DNA from: Chthonomonas sp.
Lineage (GTDB): Bacteria; Armatimonadota; Fimbriimonadia; Fimbriimonadales; Fimbriimonadaceae
NCBI GenBank assembly: GCA_016788425.1
Contig: JAEURQ010000004.1
Span: forward strand, 310,001-374,000
DNA length: 64,000 bases
Reading direction: 5' to 3'
Below, one piece after another: positions 2,071 to 31,505 of the stretch (position 1 is its first letter; the number at the start of each line of letters is the position of its first letter). The notes beneath the pieces are model-generated. The model was not told the DNA's origin. It saw only the letters and a program-made list of their open reading frames with translations, and did no database searches. The position numbers and the translations under genes were made by a program.

Positions 2071-4010
2071 TGAACGCTGGTGCCTTCGGGTGCCTCGGCT
2101 TCCGGCTGCAGCAGAATCGCGGTTCCGTCGGGGCCATCGGCGGCCAGAATCATGCCTTGACTTTCGTGACCCATCAGCTTGGCGGGCTTGAGGTTGGCCA
2201 CCACAATGACCTGGCGGCCCACAAGGTCGGCGGGCTCGTAGCTGGCGCGGATTCCGGCTAAGACTTGCCGTCGCTCCTCGCCCAAAATCACCTGCAACTT
2301 CACAAGCTTTTGGCTGCCTTCCACCGGTTCGGCTTCGAGAATACGCGCCACTTGGAGCTTCACTTTCATAAAGTCGGTGATGTCAATTTCGGCGGGTTGC
2401 TCGAACTTCGGCTTTTCCTTCTTCGGGGCGGGCGCCGCAGGGGCGGCGGGTGCTTGGGGCTTTTCGGTTTCCATAAGTTTCAGGTCAATGCGGGGGAACA
2501 TGGGGCTCGGCTCCAGGACCTTGCCGCCCACGTTCATGGTTGCGGGGTCGCCAATTCGCGACCACTCGGTGAGCATTTGCGTGGCGTCGTATCCCAGTTG
2601 GCGGGCGAGCTCGTTGGCCGCGCTCGGCATAAACGGGCGGATCATGCCCTCGGCCGATCGCAGCATAAACAGCATCGTCGCGAGAACGGCGGACAACCGG
2701 GCGTCGCCTTCTTTGGCCAGGGTCCAAGGCGCGGCTTCGGCGATGTAGCGGTTGAGTTCGCGGACCACTTCCAACGCGCTGTTGAGGGCCAAATTGTAGC
2801 GGTGCGTCGCGAAGTGAGCCGCGGCTTCGTCGCGAAGCTGCACTACTCGCGCAACCTGCGCGGCTTCCGGAGCAGCGGTGGGCACCACGCCCTCGGCGAA
2901 CTTGTGCACCATGCTCAAGCTGCGATTCAGCGCATTGCCAAGGTCGTTCGCAAGGTCGGCGTTAAAGTTCTTCGCGATCTCGTCGAGCGTAAAGTTGGAG
3001 TCGCTTTCGAAGGGCAGAACGCGAATAAGCGAGAACCGCAACGCGTCCACCGCCATCTCGTCCGAGCAGCCCATCCGCCGGAAGAAAGCCATGATCTCGT
3101 TGTGGCCGAGCACGTTGCCCAGCGACTTGCTCATCTTGGCGTCGTTAAACGTAAACCAGCCGTGAGCCACGACCGAAGTCGGGAGCGGGAGGTCCGCGCC
3201 CATGAGCATCGCTGGCCATAGCGTGGCGTGAAAACGGGTGAGAATCTCCTTGCCCATCCAGTGGATGTCGGCGGGCCAAAGCTCCTCCCAACCGGCGTTC
3301 GGCCAACCGCTCGCGGCGAGGTAGTTGATCAGCGCGTCGAACCAAACGTAGATGACCTTGCTATCGTCGCCGGGGACGGGGATGCCCCAACCCGGATTGC
3401 TGCGCGAAACGCACATGTCGCGGAGGCCCTGCTTGATGAAACTGACGACCTCGTTTTTGCGGCTCTCGGGCAAAATCCAGTTCGGCTCGGCCTCAATCTT
3501 GGCGAGCAGCGGCTCGGCAAACGCGCTCAGGCGGAAGAAATAGTTCTCCTCGCTGACCCACCGCACTTCGTTGCCATCGGGACTCTTGCCGTCCACCAGA
3601 TCGCTTTCCTTGACGAAGGTTTCCGCCGAGACGTCATACCAACCCTCGTATTTGTCCAGGAAGATATGGCCGTTTTCTTGGAGCTTGGCAAACAGCGCTT
3701 GGGCGGCTTCGTAGTGGCGCTGGCTCGACGTGCGGAAGAAGATGTCCACGTCGCAACCGGTGTCGCGCGCGCAGTCGGCAAAGGTCGCGCTGATGCGGTC
3801 CACAAAAGCCTGCGTCGTTTCGCCCGCGGTGGCCGCCGCCTCCATCACTTTGGTTCCGTTTTCGTCGGTGCCGGTGAGGAACACGGCTTCGCGCCCGTGC
3901 ATTTGCTGGTAACGCTTCACCACGTCCGCCGCCATCATGGTCAGCGCGTGGCCCGCGTGCGGCACGCTATTGACGTAATAGATCGGGGTCGTGACGTAAA
4001 ACTTCTTCAT
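2067..4010 (-). CDS. metG: Methionyl-tRNA synthetase
   Basis: A class I aminoacyl-tRNA synthetase of 647 residues that charges tRNA-Met. The HIGH-type signature is HAGH near residue 20 (YYVNSVPHAGHAL) and the KMSKS loop is KMSKSLGN near residue 300. The connective peptide lacks the CxxC zinc knuckles of the E. coli type. A C-terminal EMAP/Arc1-like tRNA-binding domain (DFMKVKLQVARI to MILAA) follows a Pro/Ala/Lys linker. The start is the ATG at 4010, which begins MKKFYVTTPIYYVNS; an in-frame upstream extension has no support. Divergent from the Rieske gene. Confidence 0.97.
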   Translation of the reverse strand: MKKFYVTTPIYYVNSVPHAGHALTMMAADVVKRYQQMHGREAVFLTGTDENGTKVMEAAATAGETTQAFVDRISATFADCARDTGCDVDIFFRTSSQRHYEAAQALFAKLQENGHIFLDKYEGWYDVSAETFVKESDLVDGKSPDGNEVRWVSEENYFFRLSAFAEPLLAKIEAEPNWILPESRKNEVVSFIKQGLRDMCVSRSNPGWGIPVPGDDSKVIYVWFDALINYLAASGWPNAGWEELWPADIHWMGKEILTRFHATLWPAMLMGADLPLPTSVVAHGWFTFNDAKMSKSLGNVLGHNEIMAFFRRMGCSDEMAVDALRFSLIRVLPFESDSNFTLDEIAKNFNADLANDLGNALNRSLSMVHKFAEGVVPTAAPEAAQVARVVQLRDEAAAHFATHRYNLALNSALEVVRELNRYIAEAAPWTLAKEGDARLSAVLATMLFMLRSAEGMIRPFMPSAANELARQLGYDATQMLTEWSRIGDPATMNVGGKVLEPSPMFPRIDLKLMETEKPQAPAAPAAPAPKKEKPKFEQPAEIDITDFMKVKLQVARILEAEPVEGSQKLVKLQVILGEERRQVLAGIRASYEPADLVGRQVIVVANLKPAKLMGHESQGMILAADGPDGTAILLQPEAEAPEGTSVH

Positions 4011-4071: not shown

Positions 4072-5199
4072 ATGGATCCGCGCCTGACTGTTGACCCCGA
4101 AATCGCGAAAGCCTGGACGCTGCCAGGCTCGTTCTATCACGATCCGGCGCTGTTTGAGCGGAGCAAGAACGAAGTGTTTGGGCGGGCGTGGCACTTTCTG
4201 GGCGACACCGACGACCTGCGCGCGCCGGGCACCGTCAAGCCGATCACGCTGCTCGAAGGTTTTTTGGATGAGCCGCTGGTGCTCACCCGCGACACCAGCG
4301 ACACGCTGCACCTGTTGAGCAACGTCTGCACGCATCGCGGCATGAAGGTGTGCGAAGGGCTGAGCAATGAGCGCTTTTTGCGGTGTCGCTACCACGGGCG
4401 TCGCTTTGGGCTGGACGGCCGGTTTCAGCATATGCCCGAGTTTGAGGGCGTTTGCGATTTTCCCGGCGAGAACGATCACTTGACGGCGGTGCCGTTTGCC
4501 CAGTGGGATAAGTTGCTCTTCGCGAGCATCTGGCCGGAAGCGCCGTTCGCCGACGTGTTTCGCCCGGTTATGGAGCGGGTTGGGTGGCTACCGCTCAACG
4601 AGTTCAAGTTCTCGCCCGAGCGGTCGCGCGACTATCTGGTGCGGGCGCACTGGGCGCTGTACGTGGAGAACTACTTGGAGGGCCTCCATATTCCGTTTAT
4701 CCACGCCGAGCTCAACGCGCAATTGGACTTTGCCGGTTACACGACCGAGATGTTTGAGCACGGCAACCTGCAGTTAGGTCGGGCGAGCGGCGCGGATGGC
4801 ATCTTCAACTTGCCCACATCGTCCCCGGATCATGGCGAGCGCATTTCGGCCTACTACTTCTGGATGTTCCCGAACTTGATGCTGAACTTCTACCCATGGG
4901 GGCTGAGCGTGAACGTGATTCAGCCAATTAACCCCGAACTGACGAAGGTGAGATTCCTTTGCTATGTGTGGGATGAAAGCAAGATTGAGGAAGGCGCCGG
5001 GGCCGCCCTCGACCGCGTGGAGCGGGAAGATGAGGTGGTGGTTGAACTCGTGCAAAAGGGGTTGAAGTCCCGATTTTATGACCGCGGTCGGTTCAGTGCC
5101 ACAAAAGAACAGGGCACCCACCAATTTCAGCGGCTTCTTGCGAAAAATTTAACAAAATCCCCTAGTGATCGAGGGGCGTCGGGCCAAAGATTCACTTAA
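4072..5199 (+). CDS. Rieske non-heme iron oxygenase, alpha-subunit type
   Basis: A 375-residue ring-hydroxylating oxygenase-like protein. The Rieske [2Fe-2S] ligands are CTH near residue 86 and CRYH about 18 residues later. The mononuclear iron site is seen in NYLEGLHIPFIH (Asn, then H-x4-H). These proteins take electrons from a separate reductase to hydroxylate aromatic, amine or sterol-like substrates. No reductase or ferredoxin gene is adjacent, so the substrate is unknown. The PilZ-like gene starts nine bases after the stop, suggesting one transcript. Confidence 0.9.
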   Translation: MDPRLTVDPEIAKAWTLPGSFYHDPALFERSKNEVFGRAWHFLGDTDDLRAPGTVKPITLLEGFLDEPLVLTRDTSDTLHLLSNVCTHRGMKVCEGLSNERFLRCRYHGRRFGLDGRFQHMPEFEGVCDFPGENDHLTAVPFAQWDKLLFASIWPEAPFADVFRPVMERVGWLPLNEFKFSPERSRDYLVRAHWALYVENYLEGLHIPFIHAELNAQLDFAGYTTEMFEHGNLQLGRASGADGIFNLPTSSPDHGERISAYYFWMFPNLMLNFYPWGLSVNVIQPINPELTKVRFLCYVWDESKIEEGAGAALDRVEREDEVVVELVQKGLKSRFYDRGRFSATKEQGTHQFQRLLAKNLTKSPSDRGASGQRFT

Positions 5200-5868: not shown

Positions 5869-6783
5869 ATGAGCGCATTGGCTCTTGAAGCAAAGAACCT
5901 CCACATCCAATATCGCCAGAAAGATGGCAAGGTTGTCGAGGCGGTTCGCGACCTGAGTTTCTCGGTTTCTCCTGGTGAAGTCGTCGGATTCCTCGGCCCC
6001 AACGGGGCCGGGAAGAGTAGCACGATTAAGCACCTGATGGGCTTTCAAGAAGCGAAGTTCGGCGAGGCGCTGGTGTTCGGCGAAAAAGCTGGCCAACCGT
6101 CGGCCAATGCCAAAATTGGCTACCTCCCCGAAGTCGCGCTCTACTATCCATTTTTGACACCGCTGGAAACGCTTAAGCTGTACGGCGAAGTGCAAGGCTT
6201 ACGCGGCGCCGCGTTGCAAAAGGAAGCCTGCGAACTGCTGGAAATCGTCGGCCTGAGCCATGCCCTCAAGAAGCAAAACCGCACCCTGAGCAAGGGCATG
6301 CTGCAGCGAGTTGGCATCGCGCAAAGCCTGCTGGGCTCGCCGCAACTCCTCATCCTTGACGAGGTGACCAGCGGTCTCGACCCGGTCGGCCGAAAAGAAC
6401 TGCGCAACCTGTTGCTAGAACGCAAACGCAACGGCGCGACCCTCTTTTTTAGCAGTCATGAGTTGGCCGAAGTAGAGATGCTTTGCGATCGCCTGCTGCT
6501 GATTCACCAAGGCAAGCTTGTCGAAGAACGCGACTTGCCGACTCTGAAAAACGAGCTGAGAAATTACGCGATTGAGTTCGCCGGACATACCAACCTCACG
6601 GACCTAGCCGATCACATTGACAAGACTGGTGCCCAATCCCAGCGCGCAACCTTCGGCAATAAGGAATTGCTGATTCAGGCCGTCGCCAGGATCAACCAAG
6701 CGGGCGGCCAGATCATTGATCTTGTCTCGCAAGAAGGCTCGCTCGAAGACTACTTTATTCAAACCATTCAGGAGGCCGCATGA
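5869..6783 (+). CDS. ABC transporter ATP-binding protein
   Basis: A 304-residue nucleotide-binding subunit. It has Walker A GPNGAGKSS near residue 44, the signature LSKGMLQRVGIA, Walker B LLILDEVTSGLDP and a switch His in FFSSHELAEVE. The C-terminal 80 residues are the extension typical of ABC-2 exporters (NatA/CcmA-like). It pairs with the permease that starts at the overlapping ATGA junction (6780-6783), so the two are translationally coupled. The substrate is unknown. Confidence 0.94.
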   Translation: MSALALEAKNLHIQYRQKDGKVVEAVRDLSFSVSPGEVVGFLGPNGAGKSSTIKHLMGFQEAKFGEALVFGEKAGQPSANAKIGYLPEVALYYPFLTPLETLKLYGEVQGLRGAALQKEACELLEIVGLSHALKKQNRTLSKGMLQRVGIAQSLLGSPQLLILDEVTSGLDPVGRKELRNLLLERKRNGATLFFSSHELAEVEMLCDRLLLIHQGKLVEERDLPTLKNELRNYAIEFAGHTNLTDLADHIDKTGAQSQRATFGNKELLIQAVARINQAGGQIIDLVSQEGSLEDYFIQTIQEAA

Positions 6784-7553
6784 CACAAGTTTGGAAAGCC
6801 ATCGCCCGCGGCGTCGTGATCGAAACGATCCGCCGCAAAGACCTTTGGGTAATCGCCATTCTTGGCTTTATCATCATGCTGAGCGCAGGGGCCCTTGGCT
6901 TCTTCGGATTCCAAGGCTTACAGTCGTTCGCCAAGGACCTCGCGGTGAGCGTGCTGGGACTGTTCTCGACGATCATCGCGATCACGACCACCTCGCGGTT
7001 GATGCCCGAGGAGATCAAGAATCGCACGCTGTACCCGCTGCTCGCGCGGCCCATTCGACGCATTGATTTGCTCATCGGCAAGCTCGCCGGAGCCATCGCC
7101 GTGAGCTGGCTGAGCTTCCTTTTGCTCGCCGTGGTGACCGCCGTTTCGCTCGCGATTTTCCGCGTGACGTTCGAGCCGATCATGCTCCAGTACCTGCTGT
7201 GCAAGATGTTTGGACTCGCCGTGGTGTGCGGCGTCACCTTCGCCCTGAGCACCCTCATGACTCCGGCCGCCGCCGCCACGATGAGTTTTATCCTCGCGTT
7301 CGGCAGCAGCATGATCGTGCGGGCGTTGGTCATGGCCAATGACGCCAACCCGGGTGCGGGCGGATTTTTCTTTAAGGCGCTCAACGGCGTGCTTCCGCAA
7401 GTCAATCTTTTCGATCTCGGCAGCCGCGTGGCCAACGACCAGTGGGGCATGGTTCCCATGTGGGTGGTCGGCGCGCTCCTCGCTTATGCGGTCCTCTACA
7501 CCAGCGCCATGCTCGGGGTGTCGTGGCTCAAGTTCCGACGCCAGGCGGTTTAA
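6780..7553 (+). CDS. ABC-2 type transporter permease
   Basis: A 257-residue integral membrane protein with about six hydrophobic segments, the length and layout of ABC-2 permeases. The cytoplasmic loop after helix 2 has MPEEIKNRTLYPLLARPIRR, the typical coupling segment (E-x-x-x-x-T followed by LLARPI) of this family. It overlaps the ATPase gene by four bases and is followed four bases later by a TPR protein gene. Together they probably form an exporter operon. Confidence 0.9.
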   Translation: MTQVWKAIARGVVIETIRRKDLWVIAILGFIIMLSAGALGFFGFQGLQSFAKDLAVSVLGLFSTIIAITTTSRLMPEEIKNRTLYPLLARPIRRIDLLIGKLAGAIAVSWLSFLLLAVVTAVSLAIFRVTFEPIMLQYLLCKMFGLAVVCGVTFALSTLMTPAAAATMSFILAFGSSMIVRALVMANDANPGAGGFFFKALNGVLPQVNLFDLGSRVANDQWGMVPMWVVGALLAYAVLYTSAMLGVSWLKFRRQAV

Positions 7554-26607: not shown

Positions 26608-27248
26608 TGCGGACGCTCATCATTTCCGGCGGTTGGGATGGGCACCATCCCCACGCGGTGGCGGAACTTCTCGCCGCCCACATCGGCGGGGAAGTCACGC
26701 TTTCGACGAGCCTCGACGATTGTCCGCAGGCTCACGAGTTCGATGTGGTGATTCCTAACTGGACCATGGGCGAGATTTCCGGCGAGCAGGCGCAAGCCTT
26801 GCTGGCGGCGGTCGCGGCGGGTACGGGGCTGGTCGGATTGCACGGCGGCATGGGCGACGCGTTTCGCAGTTGCACCGAGTTTCAGTTCGCGGTCGGCGGT
26901 CAGTTTGTGGCGCACCCCGGCGATGGCCGCCCGTATCGGGTGCGGTTCCGCGGCGAGTGGCCGCTCACGGCCGGGCTCAGCGATTTCGACGTGGTAACCG
27001 AGCAGTACTACATGCACGTGGACCCCGCGATTCGGGTGCTGGCCACGTGCCGATTCGACGAGTTTGATACGGAGATGCCGGCGGTCTGGACCAAACTGCA
27101 CGGCGAGGGCCGCGTCTTCTACTGCTCGCTCGGGCACGATCCATCGGTGGTCGCGCACCCCACCGTGCTCGAACTCATGCGGCGAGGCGTTTTATGGGCT
27201 GCGAGCCGAGGCGACTTGCAGGGCGCGCGTCTGGGCGAGGTGCTCTAG
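26607..27248 (+). CDS. ThuA-like domain protein
   Basis: A 213-residue protein with the ThuA (trehalose-utilisation-like) glutamine-amidotransferase-type fold. Visible landmarks are LIISGGWDGHHPH at the N-terminus, GTGLVGLHGGMGDAF near residue 74 and GEGRVFYCSLGHD near 174. ThuA proteins often neighbour Gfo/Idh dehydrogenases and act on sugars. The GTG start at 26607 shares its G with the preceding TAG (TAGTG), implying coupling. The catalytic Cys of true amidotransferases is replaced by His in GLHGG, as is usual for ThuA. Confidence 0.85.
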   Translation: MRTLIISGGWDGHHPHAVAELLAAHIGGEVTLSTSLDDCPQAHEFDVVIPNWTMGEISGEQAQALLAAVAAGTGLVGLHGGMGDAFRSCTEFQFAVGGQFVAHPGDGRPYRVRFRGEWPLTAGLSDFDVVTEQYYMHVDPAIRVLATCRFDEFDTEMPAVWTKLHGEGRVFYCSLGHDPSVVAHPTVLELMRRGVLWAASRGDLQGARLGEVL

Positions 27249-28258
27249 TGCGGGTGGGCATCGTCGGCTGCGGCAACATCGCCGGAATCTACGCCGAGAA
27301 TTCGCGTCGCCTCCCCGAGATTGACCTCGTGGCCTGTGCCGACCTCGACCCGGCGAAGGCAAGGGAGTTCGCCGCCCGCCACGGCATCAGCGCCGTTACG
27401 GTGGACGAACTGCTAGCCGACCCGAGCGTGGAGCTGATTATCAACCTCACCACGCCCTTGGCTCACTACGCGGTGGCTCGCGCCGCGCTGCAAAACGGCA
27501 AGCACGTCTACAACGAGAAGCCGTTGGCCGGCCAAGTAGAAGAAGGTCGCGAACTGCTTACCCTGGCCGCCGAGCGCGGCTTGCGTGTGGGTGGCGCGCC
27601 CGATACGTTCATGGGCGCTGGCTACCAAACCGCGAAGAACCTCATCGAGCGCGGGGAAATCGGCCGCCCGCTGTCGGCAGTCGCCATGATGCTGTGTCCG
27701 GGTCACGAGCACTGGCATCCCAATCCGGCGTTTTATTACCAGCCCGGGGCCGGGCCGATGTTCGACATGGGGCCGTACTATCTGACCGCCATGGTCCATC
27801 TTTTTGGCCGCGTTCGGCGGGTGCAATCCACGGCGACGCGCGCGCATGATCGGCGACTCATCTCGAGCCAGACGCGCGCGGGCGAGTTCGCCGAAGTGGA
27901 AGTGGACACCCATATCCAGGCGTTGCTCGAGTTCGAATCCGGGTTTGTGGCGACGCTCATCACCAGCTTCGACGTGCAGGCGCACCAACTTCCGCATCTG
28001 CAGGTGTTCGGGAGCGCGGGCTCGCTCAACTGCCCCGACCCCAACGGCTTTGGCGGGCCGCTCCACCTCTGGACCAAGGACTCGCCGGCCTGGACCGAGG
28101 TTGCGCTGGAGACTCCTCACCATGAAAACTGGCGCGGGCTTGGCGTGGCCGACCTCATCGCGAGCATCGGCGAGAATCGCGAGCCAGCCGCCAGCGGCGA
28201 GCTAGCTCAGCACGTGCTGGAAGTTATGCATTTAGCTTGTACTGCTCAAGGTGTTTGA
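27248..28258 (+). CDS. Gfo/Idh/MocA family oxidoreductase
   Basis: A 336-residue NAD(P)-dependent dehydrogenase. The Rossmann motif VGIVGCGNIAGIY is at the start and the EKP motif (YNEKPLA), whose Lys is catalytic, is near residue 97; the GPMFDMGPYYL block carries the D-x-G-x-H-like region. Likely acts on a sugar or inositol together with the ThuA protein; substrate unknown. The GTG start overlaps the ThuA stop (TAGTG). Its last 34 codons are duplicated at 30461-30562 on the far side of the RT cassette. Confidence 0.9.
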   Translation: MRVGIVGCGNIAGIYAENSRRLPEIDLVACADLDPAKAREFAARHGISAVTVDELLADPSVELIINLTTPLAHYAVARAALQNGKHVYNEKPLAGQVEEGRELLTLAAERGLRVGGAPDTFMGAGYQTAKNLIERGEIGRPLSAVAMMLCPGHEHWHPNPAFYYQPGAGPMFDMGPYYLTAMVHLFGRVRRVQSTATRAHDRRLISSQTRAGEFAEVEVDTHIQALLEFESGFVATLITSFDVQAHQLPHLQVFGSAGSLNCPDPNGFGGPLHLWTKDSPAWTEVALETPHHENWRGLGVADLIASIGENREPAASGELAQHVLEVMHLACTAQGV

Positions 28259-28283
28259 GGCAGCACGCGCGAACTCGCGCCCG
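28157..28283. repeat. 127-bp direct repeat, left copy
   Basis: The left copy covers the last 102 bases of the Gfo/Idh gene and a remnant of the glyQ 3' end. It matches 30461-30587 at 122 of 127 positions without gaps. The offset is 2304 bases. The pair brackets the reverse-transcriptase cassette. Confidence 0.95.
28224..28283 (-). pseudogene. glyQ 3'-end remnant
   Basis: On the minus strand this stretch still reads RARVRACCLKHLEQYKLNA and a stop, the same C-terminus as the intact GlyQ at 30528-31505. Only the last 20 codons remain. It overlaps the Gfo/Idh 3' end by 35 bases, showing how the two genes met tail-to-tail before the cassette arrived. Confidence 0.85.
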
Positions 28284-28360
28284 GAGCATCAGGTACCTCT
28301 GACTTGTCGCTGTCACTCTACTTCCAACTTGAAACTGACTGAACGATGAGCGCTCTGAAG

Positions 28361-29614
28361 TTAGAAATCTTCGTCCGGTTCTTGCACCATCTCGCTTGGG
28401 CGTCTGTCCATCTGACGCTTTAGGTCATGTAATTGCGAAAGCCCCAATAATTTTGCTTGCTCCATCCTCGGATATCTTGATTGGTTGCGATCAAGAACGC
28501 CATGCTTCTTATTCCACTGACCAACGATTTTCCGTTGATGACTGTCGAGCTCATCAATTACGGATCGTGGAATGCTGCACCATTTATATGCGGCAAACCA
28601 ACCTTTCACAAAATTGTCTAACCTCTTCAGAAGCGTTAGGAGGTCGTTTGATGTATCCCCAATTTCTGTCACTCTGTCGCAAAAATGCTGCAGAGCTTTG
28701 TTTCTGGGACGAACAATGTGTTCATCTTTTACATTCTCGGGTAGGAATTCTAACCCGACAAAGGTGATCGTGTCCTTTCCGGACCCAATCTTGGCTTTTG
28801 TGTCTTCTTTGTTTTGCGTCGAATGAGCGGTTAGTCCAACATCCTCTAAGATTCTTGAAATCACGTCTTGGATATCCGAGGCGCTTTGTTCGCTCTCCGC
28901 AAAGGCAATGAGATCATCAACATACCGCAGATAGGAAATCTTACGTTTCTCAAGGGCGATATCAAAATCGTGCAGATACACGCTCGAAAGAATGGGCGAT
29001 AGGCATGATCCTTGAGGAATCCCTCGTTCGACTTCTTCGAAGTAGAAAGCCAGGTCTACATACTGGGCTCTCCATACCTTTTCTGGAGGCTTCCGTTGGG
29101 CGACTGCAAGCAACAACGGCATGAGTGTCTCATCAGGCAAGAGCTTCTTCAGTTTTTGCTGCAGCAAGCTATGATTAATACTTGGAAAAAACTTCTTTAT
29201 ATCGGTTTCGAAAAAGTGGGAGTAATCCTTTCTCCGTTGTTGAAGTTCTTTCGCCAAGGCAGGCAGTGACCGACTAGTTTCCCCTCGAAGGGAAGCGCGG
29301 GCATACGTGTTTGGTTGTGCGAGAACCGCAGCAAGATGCTGAGAAACAACCTTGAAAATTGCTCTTTCAACTGCCCGATCAATAGGGCCAACGGAGAGAA
29401 TCGGCCTTACCCCGTTTATCAAATGCAATTCAGGTTCACCAAATTGAAACGATCCGCTTTGGATATCGTTCAGCAACTTCGGGATGTGATCGAGAATTTT
29501 CAACTGCATTCTCTCGTATTCGCGCCGATACTTCACTGCACAACCGGGCTGCGGCCCAACCTTGTGAAAAGACTGGAGAAGGACTTCCTCAGATATTTTG
29601 TCCAACAATGACAT
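28361..29614 (-). CDS. Stand-alone reverse transcriptase (group II-like lineage, possible defence RT)
   Basis: A 417-residue RNA-directed DNA polymerase. Conserved blocks in order: SVGPIDRAVERAIF near 75 (RT1), FFETDIKKFFPSINH near 135 (motif A Asp), RGIPQGSCLSPILSSVYL near 198 (motif B) and YLRYVDDLIAF near 229 (motif C, YVDD). Then FVGLEF and a thumb/maturase-X-like region (NFVKGWFAAYKW). No HNH endonuclease, protease or DGR-type SQ motif is present. The start is uncertain: ATG at 29614 or 29620, neither with a clear ribosome site. The base composition is clearly lower in GC than the flanks. It lies inside a 127-bp repeat-bounded cassette, with repeat-rich DNA directly upstream. Family placement (G2L, DRT or other) needs a phylogeny. 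Confidence 0.93.
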   Translation of the reverse strand: MSLLDKISEEVLLQSFHKVGPQPGCAVKYRREYERMQLKILDHIPKLLNDIQSGSFQFGEPELHLINGVRPILSVGPIDRAVERAIFKVVSQHLAAVLAQPNTYARASLRGETSRSLPALAKELQQRRKDYSHFFETDIKKFFPSINHSLLQQKLKKLLPDETLMPLLLAVAQRKPPEKVWRAQYVDLAFYFEEVERGIPQGSCLSPILSSVYLHDFDIALEKRKISYLRYVDDLIAFAESEQSASDIQDVISRILEDVGLTAHSTQNKEDTKAKIGSGKDTITFVGLEFLPENVKDEHIVRPRNKALQHFCDRVTEIGDTSNDLLTLLKRLDNFVKGWFAAYKWCSIPRSVIDELDSHQRKIVGQWNKKHGVLDRNQSRYPRMEQAKLLGLSQLHDLKRQMDRRPSEMVQEPDEDF

Positions 29615-29624
29615 ATGCATAACC

Positions 29625-29665
29625 AAAACAGGGTCGAACTTGATCAGTGCTCGACCCTCTGTTTT
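29625..29665 (-). promoter_or_regulatory. Stem-loop immediately upstream of the RT start
   Basis: Arms AAAACAG-GGTCGA and TCGACC-CT-CTGTTTT pair over 13 bp with a two-base bulge and a 13-base loop. Read on the minus strand, the stem ends in TTTT a few bases before the RT start codon, so it could be an attenuator, the terminator of an upstream RNA, or part of that RNA. Confidence 0.6.
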
Positions 29666-29668
29666 GTC

Positions 29669-29815
29669 TCAATCGGCCAGCCCGAATCTTCCTCGCGGAA
29701 CCGCCTTGTCGAAAAATCGACTTAACGCATCGGTCTTGCCCAGGGGCTTTTCCAGTGATTGTACGCATCGGCTGCGTGCTGTTCCTCGCGATTGTGCAAA
29801 AATTTTGCGGCCCGC
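29669..29815. repeat. 147-bp direct repeat, copy A
   Basis: The first 81 bases are identical to 30068-30148. A short variable stretch follows (29750-29762), then about 39 identical bases up to a poly-A run, then a more diverged end. Contains a GTCGA-AAAA-TCGAC hairpin. It sits just upstream of the RT gene. Confidence 0.92.
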
Positions 29816-29839
29816 GATATACACGCTTGCGCCTTGCCG

Positions 29840-29898
29840 CCGAGCCGCCGCCGTGCTGACACATGCCGCTAGATTAGCGGAAGTGGAGTCGGTGGGGT
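29840..29898. repeat. 59-bp inverted repeat, left arm
   Basis: Reverse complement of 30302-30360 at 57 of 59 positions. Each arm contains its own perfect hairpin, CCGCTA-GAT-TAGCGG (29866-29880 here). The arms enclose 403 bases, including direct-repeat copy B. Confidence 0.92.
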
Positions 29899-30067
29899 TG
29901 CGTAGTCCGGACCCCGTCTCGAAAGACAGGGCCCGCGTTATCTCACTTTCGCGCTCGGTGTGAGCGACGATCTACTTTCAGTCTTGGAAGTCGGTGCTTC
30001 CGCTCTTTACGAGCTCTTTTTTACTCATTATCGTTTTCCTGCAAGCTCCCATAACTGACTATCTAAG

Positions 30068-30213
30068 TCAATCGGCCAGCCCGAATCTTCCTCGCGGAAC
30101 CGCCTTGTCGAAAAATCGACTTAACGCATCGGTCTTGCCCAGGGGCTTGCGCAGTGAGAAACGCATCGGCTGCGTGCTGTTCCTCGCGATTGTGCAAAAA
30201 ATTTGCGGACCGC
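30068..30213. repeat. 147-bp direct repeat, copy B (146 bp)
   Basis: Second copy of the repeat at 29669-29815 in the same orientation, 399 bases away. It lies inside the 59-bp inverted-repeat pair, whereas copy A lies outside. A one-base length difference in the variable stretch shifts every reading frame between copies. Confidence 0.92.
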
Positions 30214-30301
30214 AGAAAGCACGGCTGCGTTCAATTCAGCTGTCAATGTGCCCTTCCGACTATTGGAATTCTAGTTCCGAACCTAGTCTTGCGAGTAGGT
30301 C

Positions 30302-30360
30302 ACCCCACCGACTCCACTTCCGCTAATCTAGCGGCATGTGTAAGCACGGCGGTGGCTCGG
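30302..30360. repeat. 59-bp inverted repeat, right arm
   Basis: Partner of 29840-29898 with two mismatches. No target-site duplication is visible outside either arm. If this is a small non-autonomous element (MITE-like), it would be 521 bp long. Confidence 0.92.
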
Positions 30361-30460
30361 CACCTCAATTTTACCAGGACGAATAGTGCTCCTATCATTG
30401 CCGCTCACTGCGTTATCCCCATTTGTTCCTCAAGTGATGCTCCCCGCCCAGCTCTGCTTA

Positions 30461-30562
30461 ATCGCGAGCATCGGCGAGAATCGCGAGCCAGCCGCCAGCG
30501 GCGACTTAGCCCAGCACGTGCTGGAAGTTATGCATTTAGCTTGTACTGTTCAAGGTGCTTGA
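30461..30562 (+). pseudogene. Gfo/Idh 3'-end remnant
   Basis: The plus strand reads the last 33 codons plus stop of the dehydrogenase encoded at 27248-28258, with Glu-to-Asp, Ala-to-Val and Val-to-Ala changes and no stop or frameshift. It has no start and is not expected to be translated. It marks the right boundary of the inserted cassette. Confidence 0.85.
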
Positions 30563-30587
30563 GGCAGCACGCGCGAACTCGCGCCCG
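30461..30587. repeat. 127-bp direct repeat, right copy
   Basis: Right copy of the repeat at 28157-28283. It covers a detached Gfo/Idh 3' end and the last 20 codons of the intact glyQ gene. Three of the five differences fall in the Gfo/Idh-only part and two in the part shared with glyQ. Confidence 0.95.
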
Positions 30588-31505
30588 AATCCGGTTGATG
30601 TAGGCCGCGCGCTCCGTCACCGAAACCGCGCCACGAGCATCCAGCACGTTGAAAATGTGGCTGCACTTCAACGCCAAATCTAGCGCCGGATAGGCGAGGC
30701 CAATCGCGCCCACCTTTTCGCGAGCGGCTTGCTTTTGCTCAGGAGAAAGCTCGCCGGCATAGGCGTCGTCGGTGGTGAGGATGCCCAGATCGCCGTTGAA
30801 GAAGACGGGCGTCTCCACGACGCGCTTCGACTCGGCCTCGTACAGGTCAAAGAGCTGAAAGAGCATTTCCGTGCTTGCGACCTCGAAGTTGTAGACGTTG
30901 TGCTGCATCTCCAATTGGAAATCCACGTCGCGGTACATCAGCGTGTCGTTCCATTTGAGGTCTTGCCAAAAGCTGTTTTGGCCGTTCAGCATCAGGCAAA
31001 GGCGCTCGGGGCCGTAGGTAATTTCGGCGCACACCGGGTTGCATTCCACGCCGCCCATTTGTTGAAAGAACGTGAACTGCGTGATCTCGGTGCCATCGAG
31101 CCAGACTTCCCAGCCGATGCCGCTCGCGCCGGCGGCTTGATCCTCCCAGTCGTCCTCCACCAAGCGCACGTCGTGCTTGCTGGTGTCAAATCCCAACGCG
31201 TCGAGGCTGCCCATGTAAAGGTCCACGATGTTATCGGGGCTGGGCTTCATCACCACCTGATATTGGTAGTAGCGCTGACTGCGCTGCGGGTTTCGCGTAT
31301 AGCGGCCGTCGGCGGGGCGTCGGCTGGGCTGCACGTAAGCCACGTTCCACGGCTCCGGCCCCAGCGATCGCAGCGCGGTGGCGGGGTGCTTGGTCCCGGC
31401 GCCGACCTCGGTGTCGTAGGGTTGCAGGATCGCGCACCCTTGCGCCCCCCAATATTCGTTGAGAATCTGGATTAGGTTCTGAAGGGTGACGACGGGCTTG
31501 CTCAC
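30528..31505 (-). CDS. glyQ: Glycyl-tRNA synthetase alpha subunit
   Basis: A 325-residue class II synthetase catalytic subunit of the heterotetrameric GlyRS. It has the family N-terminus LIQILNEYWGAQGCAILQPYDTEVGAG in order, PSRRPADGRY, and the block QMGGVECNPVCAEITYG. The beta subunit gene (glyS) is not adjacent, although the two are commonly neighbours or fused. A terminator at 31522-31558 separates it from the upstream prepilin operon. Its 3' end forms half of the 127-bp repeat. Confidence 0.97.
   Translation of the reverse strand: MSKPVVTLQNLIQILNEYWGAQGCAILQPYDTEVGAGTKHPATALRSLGPEPWNVAYVQPSRRPADGRYTRNPQRSQRYYQYQVVMKPSPDNIVDLYMGSLDALGFDTSKHDVRLVEDDWEDQAAGASGIGWEVWLDGTEITQFTFFQQMGGVECNPVCAEITYGPERLCLMLNGQNSFWQDLKWNDTLMYRDVDFQLEMQHNVYNFEVASTEMLFQLFDLYEAESKRVVETPVFFNGDLGILTTDDAYAGELSPEQKQAAREKVGAIGLAYPALDLALKCSHIFNVLDARGAVSVTERAAYINRIRARVRACCLKHLEQYKLNA

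What the first reader, a model, noticed from the sequence alone, without database searches (positions are those of the whole stretch)
29669..30360. Nested direct and inverted repeats beside the RT: candidate structured RNA or mobile units
A 147-bp direct repeat occurs twice (81 bp fully identical) and a 59-bp inverted repeat pair (57/59) encloses the second copy. The repeats contain small perfect hairpins (CCGCTA-GAT-TAGCGG; GTCGA-AAAA-TCGAC). One short stretch (29750-29762 versus 30149-30160) is strongly diverged between identical blocks, as expected for a variable loop or for two members of an RNA family. Alternatively the inverted pair delimits a 521-bp MITE-like unit.
Basis: seen in the sequence. 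Interest (0 to 1): 0.68.

Follow-up and report, generated by a model that had tools for sequence, protein, structure and literature searches.

The report
Repeats inside a foreign reverse-transcriptase island
The repeats are real and single-copy, and they sit in the non-coding half of a small, foreign-looking reverse-transcriptase insertion wedged between two gene ends that are themselves duplicated over 127 bases; it looks like a reverse transcriptase with its own RNA partner rather than a repeat family, but what the repeats do is unproven.

Summary
Confirmed: a 147/146-bp direct repeat (93.9%, first 81 bp identical, spaced 399 bp) and a 60-bp inverted repeat (58/60) lie upstream of a reverse-transcriptase (RT) gene. 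RT and repeats together form a 2,177-bp insert (28284-30460, 49.5% GC against 60%). It is flanked by a 127-bp direct repeat (96%) made of the overlapping 3' ends of an oxidoreductase gene and glyQ. A second RT insert of similar size in the same family (G088) is flanked by a 215-bp duplicated gene end. All these repeats are single-copy in the genome, so a MITE or passive repeat family is not supported. The leader folds better than shuffled sequence mainly in RT sense and between the direct repeats; the repeats alone do not fold. The RT is an orphan, group-II-like (nearest solved fold G2L4; nearest defence profile UG17/DRT10), and meets no tested family definition in full. A distant RT clade (Acinetobacter, one viral contig) has the same repeat geometry, with a repeat-to-repeat unit that is an endless open frame; the window's unit is not open. 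Best reading: a horizontally acquired RT plus leader-RNA island. The direct repeats may be paired template arms, but simple duplication remains possible.

The parts
28157..28283 (.). left copy of the 127-bp flanking direct repeat (3' end of the Gfo/Idh/MocA gene overlapping a copy of the glyQ 3' end)
   Evidence: blastn self-comparison, 96%
28284..30460 (.). inserted RT island, 2,177 bp, 49.5% GC against 60.1 +/- 2.6% for windows of that size
28361..29626 (-). reverse transcriptase, 421 aa, intact motifs (FETDIKKFF, GIPQGSCLSP, YVDD); no endonuclease domain found
29622..29667 (-). strong hairpin abutting the RT start (CAAAACAGAGGGTCGA...TCGACCCTGTTTTGG), terminator- or attenuator-like
   Evidence: z -3.5 minus strand, -3.3 plus strand
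29669..29815 (-). direct repeat copy A; ends 43 nt before the RT start
29725..29771 (-). 9-nt word CCGATGCGT repeated 38 nt apart inside copy A (A-B-A'-like); the variable block lies between
   Evidence: shuffle P 0.035; the word occurs only 4 times in the window
29839..29898 (.). inverted repeat, left arm, with the CCGCTA-GAT-TAGCGG hairpin
29899..30020 (-). best-folded part of the leader in RT sense, with a 12-bp UUCG-capped stem
   Evidence: z -4.3, antisense -1.4
30068..30213 (-). direct repeat copy B (CCGATGCGTT repeated 37 nt apart)
30302..30361 (.). inverted repeat, right arm
30461..30587 (.). right copy of the 127-bp flanking direct repeat (glyQ 3' end, native side)
27194..28258 (+). 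Gfo/Idh/MocA oxidoreductase, intact, ends inside the left flanking copy
30528..31505 (-). glyQ, glycyl-tRNA synthetase alpha subunit, intact, ends inside the right flanking copy; same direction as the RT

Best explanation
A horizontally acquired, minimal retro-island: one stand-alone group-II-like RT plus an ~830-nt non-coding leader, inserted at the overlapping 3' ends of glyQ and an oxidoreductase gene. Shown: the insert boundaries, foreign composition, long flanking duplication of the gene ends, single copy, an intact RT with no close relative found, and a second insert of the same plan. Inferred: the leader is transcribed in RT sense as the RT's partner RNA, and the repeats belong to it. 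The 60-bp inverted arms would close a ~400-nt loop holding copy B, with copy A just outside next to the RT gene. The two 147-nt copies would be paired template or acceptor arms that let the nascent cDNA transfer from B back to A. The flanking duplication suggests that the element carried a diverged copy of the gene end (homology- or attachment-site-like integration) rather than making a simple duplication.
For: Flanking 127-bp repeat. Insert GC 49.5%, lower than every window of that size. Both genes intact. G088 insert with RT, flanked by a 215-bp duplicated 3' end of an alpha/beta-hydrolase gene, insert GC 46.6% against 55.6%. Differences between flanking copies mostly synonymous in the target gene: G088 9 of 14 codons; window glyQ 2 of 2, but oxidoreductase only 2 of 5. 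Single copy. RT-sense folding bias. Same repeat geometry in a distant RT clade: 126-150 bp repeats, 378-399 apart, ending roughly 50-60 nt before the RT; no such pair in the other non-DGR RT loci checked.
Against: No transcript data and no homologous leader, so the RNA is not demonstrated. The direct repeats alone do not fold. The window unit is not an open frame (4-6 stops per RT-sense frame). The RT falls outside the repeat-pair clade (AU p 0.034, long branches). The three repeat pairs show similar divergence (about 3-6%), which also fits ordinary duplications of one age. No empty site is available: the glyQ/oxidoreductase neighbourhood is not conserved in relatives, and G088's hydrolase gene has no DNA match in 19 congeners.
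Confidence: 0.5

Rival explanations
1. The internal direct and inverted repeats are ordinary segmental duplications in a non-coding region, perhaps by-products of template switching when the island formed, and have no function.
For: All three pairs are about 3-6% diverged; direct repeats unstructured alone; no open frame in the unit; no homologue in which to see conservation.
Against: 81 bp remain identical while differences are clustered; spacing and position match the pairs of another RT clade; a 9-10-nt word is repeated inside each copy around the variable block.
Confidence: 0.35
2. Terminal-repeat template for concatemeric cDNA, as inferred for the Acinetobacter/viral clade and as shown for DRT2: strand transfer between the two repeats makes tandem copies of a ~399-nt unit.
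For: Geometry match (147 bp, 399 apart, 43 nt before the RT); clade units of 378, 381, 387 and 399 nt, all divisible by 3, each with an endless RT-sense frame.
Against: The window unit (398/399) has 4-6 stops per RT-sense frame (shuffle P 0.93); RT not in that clade. A non-coding product would be needed.
Confidence: 0.15
3. DRT10-like short-repeat synthesis from an A-B-A' template (CCGATGCGT-29 nt-CCGATGCGT) inside each 147-nt copy.
For: UG17 (=DRT10, PMC12632851) is the best-scoring named defence-RT profile; internal word repeat, shuffle P 0.035 and 0.006.
Against: Profile match covers only 117-290 of 429; no SLATT gene; B of 28-29 nt exceeds the ~10-nt limit reported for one DRT10 (PMC12632851); the word search was made after seeing the sequence.
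Confidence: 0.08
4. A 523-bp MITE bounded by the inverted repeats.
For: 60-bp, 58/60 inverted repeat.
Against: No other copy in the genome or phylum; no target duplication at its ends.
Confidence: 0.03

Closest known systems
G2L4 group II intron-like RT (domesticated, DNA repair)
   Same: Closest solved structure by sequence (E 7e-19) and by fold (9d4s, TM 0.67/0.69); stand-alone, no intron RNA found
   Different: 21% identity; YVDD instead of the YIDD that is distinctive of G2L4 (PMC4244168); sits in an insert with a repeat-bearing leader
DRT10 / UG17 defence RT with ncRNA
   Same: Best-scoring named DRT profile (112 bits); YVDD; non-coding region upstream; short repeated word around a variable stretch
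   Different: Partial profile match; no SLATT partner; leader of ~830 nt with 147-nt paired repeats; B segment too long
DRT2 (neo) rolling-circle RT
   Same: Repetitive RNA leader next to an RT is conceivable as a concatemer template
   Different: Weak profile match; no endless frame; the DRT2 template is 111-129 nt (PMC12039810)
Diversity-generating retroelements
   Same: Pair of ~150-bp near-identical repeats beside an RT
   Different: RT has QGxxLSP, not (I/V/L)GxxxSQ; differences between copies not adenine-biased; true DGRs of the phylum were recovered as controls
Integrative elements that restore a gene 3' end
   Same: Flanking repeat is the target gene's 3' end, both genes stay intact, copies differ largely at synonymous sites
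   Different: No integrase in the insert

Membership tests
MITE | several copies in the genome | tested here: not met
   single copy; none in 291 genomes of the phylum beyond short chance-level matches
MITE | short target-site duplication at the ends of the inverted-repeat unit | tested here: not met
   flanks ...TTGCC / ACCTC...
Diversity-generating retroelement | RT motif (I/V/L)GxxxSQ | tested here: not met
   window RT has GIPQGSCLSP; control DGRs in the phylum have IGNLTSQ and similar
Diversity-generating retroelement | adenine-specific differences between template and variable repeat | tested here: not met
   differences T>G, T>C, C>G, T>A, C>A
Group II intron | intron RNA (domains V/VI) around the RT gene | tested here: not met
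   no Rfam match at E<=1 in 28200-30700; only 77 nt between the RT stop and the end of the insert; group_II_RT_mat 119 bits against a cut-off of 300
DRT10 (UG17) | RT matches the UG17 family over its length | tested here: not met
   profile positions 117-290 of 429 only
DRT10 (UG17) | adjacent SLATT gene | tested here: not met
   neighbours are an oxidoreductase and glyQ; ORFs in the insert have no Pfam match
DRT10 (UG17) | ncRNA with A-B-A' template | tested here: inconclusive
   9-10-nt word repeated 37-38 nt apart in both copies
DRT2 / neo-like concatemer template | unit length divisible by 3 with an endless open frame | tested here: not met
   398/399 nt, 4-6 stops per RT-sense frame
Retron | retron-family RT with msr-msd RNA closed by an a1/a2 stem upstream | tested here: inconclusive
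   no Rfam match; retron St85 profile 65 bits against a cut-off of 235; the 60-bp inverted pair sits where a1/a2 would, but is far longer than usual
Mobile element with target-site duplication | insert flanked by a direct repeat of target sequence | tested here: met
   127 bp, 96%, spanning the overlapping gene ends
Mobile element with target-site duplication | empty site in a relative | not testable with these tools
   the neighbourhood is not conserved in 29 relatives

The most novel reading that the evidence does not exclude
A new kind of retroelement: an RT whose RNA template carries two long (about 130-150 nt) repeats used as strand-transfer arms to make tandem cDNA, housed in an island that integrates with 127-215-bp duplications of gene 3' ends and no integrase.
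Probability: 0.15. Interest if true: 0.85.

Novelty: new variant of a known kind. Interest (0 to 1): 0.5.

Why it matters
If the reading holds, it adds a stand-alone RT with a repeat-bearing leader RNA and an unusual, integrase-free insertion with long duplicated gene ends. It also gives a concrete geometry (paired ~130-150-nt repeats about 390 nt apart just upstream of an RT) by which other RT systems can be found; the search it prompted turned up an Acinetobacter RT clade whose repeat-to-repeat unit is an endless open reading frame.

Tried and rejected
MITE (single copy, no short duplication). DGR (wrong RT motif, no adenine bias; true DGRs recovered as controls). Group II intron (no intron RNA). 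Retron (inconclusive, disfavoured). Protein coding in the repeats: plus-strand ORFs have no Pfam match and a 1-nt gap shifts the frame between copies. Endless-ORF template for the window: tested and not met. Empty-site search: neighbourhood not conserved. No homologous leader in the phylum or plasmids. Invalid negatives: the DNA patterns were mis-spaced by 2 nt and prove nothing. Exact-peptide scans of 85k genomes and of viral contigs found no relative, but these reach only close relatives.

Full report
Observation. The repeats are as described, with small corrections. Direct repeat 29669-29815 / 30068-30213, 93.9% over 147 columns, first 81 bp identical, starts 399 bp apart; inverted repeat 29839-29898 / 30302-30361, 58/60. 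The CCGCTA-GAT-TAGCGG hairpin lies in the inverted arms, not in the direct repeats. All are single-copy in the 2.67-Mb genome, and nothing beyond ~20-40 nt chance-level matches turns up in 291 genomes of the phylum.

What frames them. A third repeat, 127 bp at 96%, lies at 28157-28283 and 30461-30587. It consists of the overlapping 3' ends of a Gfo/Idh/MocA oxidoreductase gene and of glyQ, so that each gene keeps an intact end. Between the copies lies a 2,177-bp insert holding only the RT gene and its leader. Its GC (49.5%) is lower than that of every window of that size in the 64 kb (60.1 +/- 2.6%).

A second case. A genome of the same family (G088) has an RT of 426 aa in a 2,066-bp insert flanked by a 215-bp, 93% direct repeat: the last 215 bp, stop codon included, of an alpha/beta-hydrolase gene (the hydrolase name rests on reading the sequence, not on a family search). 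Its insert is also GC-poor (46.6% against 55.6%). In both cases the RT runs in the same direction as the gene whose end is duplicated (glyQ, hydrolase). Differences between the flanking copies lean to synonymous sites: G088, 10 of 15 at third positions and 9 of 14 codons synonymous; window, both differences inside glyQ synonymous, though only 2 of 5 in the oxidoreductase frame. The counts are small. They favour two diverged functional gene ends, one brought in with the element, over one neutral duplicate; inference, not proof. The other four RT loci of the family that were looked at closely show no long flanking repeat.

The RT. 421 aa, RVT_1, motifs intact, YVDD. Best named defence profile UG17, partial; group II RT/maturase far below cut-off; nearest solved structure G2L4 by sequence and by fold (AlphaFold2 model, pLDDT 76.9; TM 0.67/0.69). 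No relative above about 31% identity was found in the phylum, plasmids or phages.

The leader. In RT sense, 29899-30020 folds well below shuffles (z -4.3; antisense -1.4), and the 403 nt between the inverted arms gives z -4.0 (antisense -2.6). The z of -15 for the whole leader is largely the 60-bp inverted repeat. The direct repeats alone are unremarkable. A strong hairpin abuts the RT start. Inside each direct repeat the word CCGATGCGT occurs twice, 37-38 nt apart, around the variable block. This recalls the A-B-A' template of DRT10 (PMC12632851), but the spacing is too long for what was measured there and the test was post hoc.

A distant parallel. RTs from Acinetobacter records and one viral contig (about 23-27% identical to this RT, 29-63% to each other) carry a pair of 126-150-bp direct repeats 378-399 bp apart, ending just upstream of the RT. 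Repeat sequences differ between lineages but are 97-100% identical within each. All four repeat-to-repeat units (399, 387, 378, 381 nt) are divisible by 3 and have an RT-sense frame without stops. Dinucleotide-shuffle P is 0.003, under 0.001 and 0.001 for three; the fourth, GC-rich, is uninformative at 0.44. This is the signature reported for DRT2 (PMC12039810: units divisible by 3, no stops), which suggests strand transfer between the repeats and a concatemeric gene. The window shares the geometry (147 bp, 399, 43 nt) but not the open frame (4-6 stops per frame, P 0.93), and its RT lies outside that clade (AU p 0.034, with long branches). The geometry match was also noticed after the fact. 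It supports paired template arms only weakly.

Verdict. A foreign RT island with an unusual long flanking duplication is well supported as anatomy; an RT-sense leader RNA is probable but not shown; the function of the internal repeats is open between paired template arms and passive duplication.

Noticed in passing
L057 (NZ_CP059551) 2231-2755; L080 (CP119252) 3216-3731; L079 (NZ_CP077849) 3260-3772; L118 2305-2835: RT clade with paired 126-150-bp direct repeats 378-399 nt apart upstream of the RT; each unit is divisible by 3 and endlessly open in RT sense, with a transmembrane-like stretch: a candidate DRT2-neo-like system with explicit terminal repeats. No SLATT or other Pfam domain in three of the small ORFs.
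   Followed up: partly
L071 (G088) 4790-5004 / 7071-7285: 2,066-bp RT insert flanked by a 215-bp duplicated 3' end of an alpha/beta-hydrolase gene.
   Followed up: partly
L079 3929-4688 against L081: A ~760-bp segment inside the RT gene is inverted between two A. baumannii records that are otherwise 100% identical over 8.6 kb: possible phase inversion or an assembly artefact; no obvious inverted repeat at its ends.
   Followed up: partly
L099, L100, L101, L106, L111: Typical DGRs in the phylum with adenine-biased template/variable repeats.
   Followed up: yes
L078 (AP014882) 6047-6362: 316-bp perfect (TGTCC)n array about 0.9 kb downstream of an RT related to the Acinetobacter clade; no matching template near the RT.
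   Followed up: partly
28282-28291 and 30429-30443: Short inverted match GGAGCATCA near the two ends of the insert.
   Followed up: no
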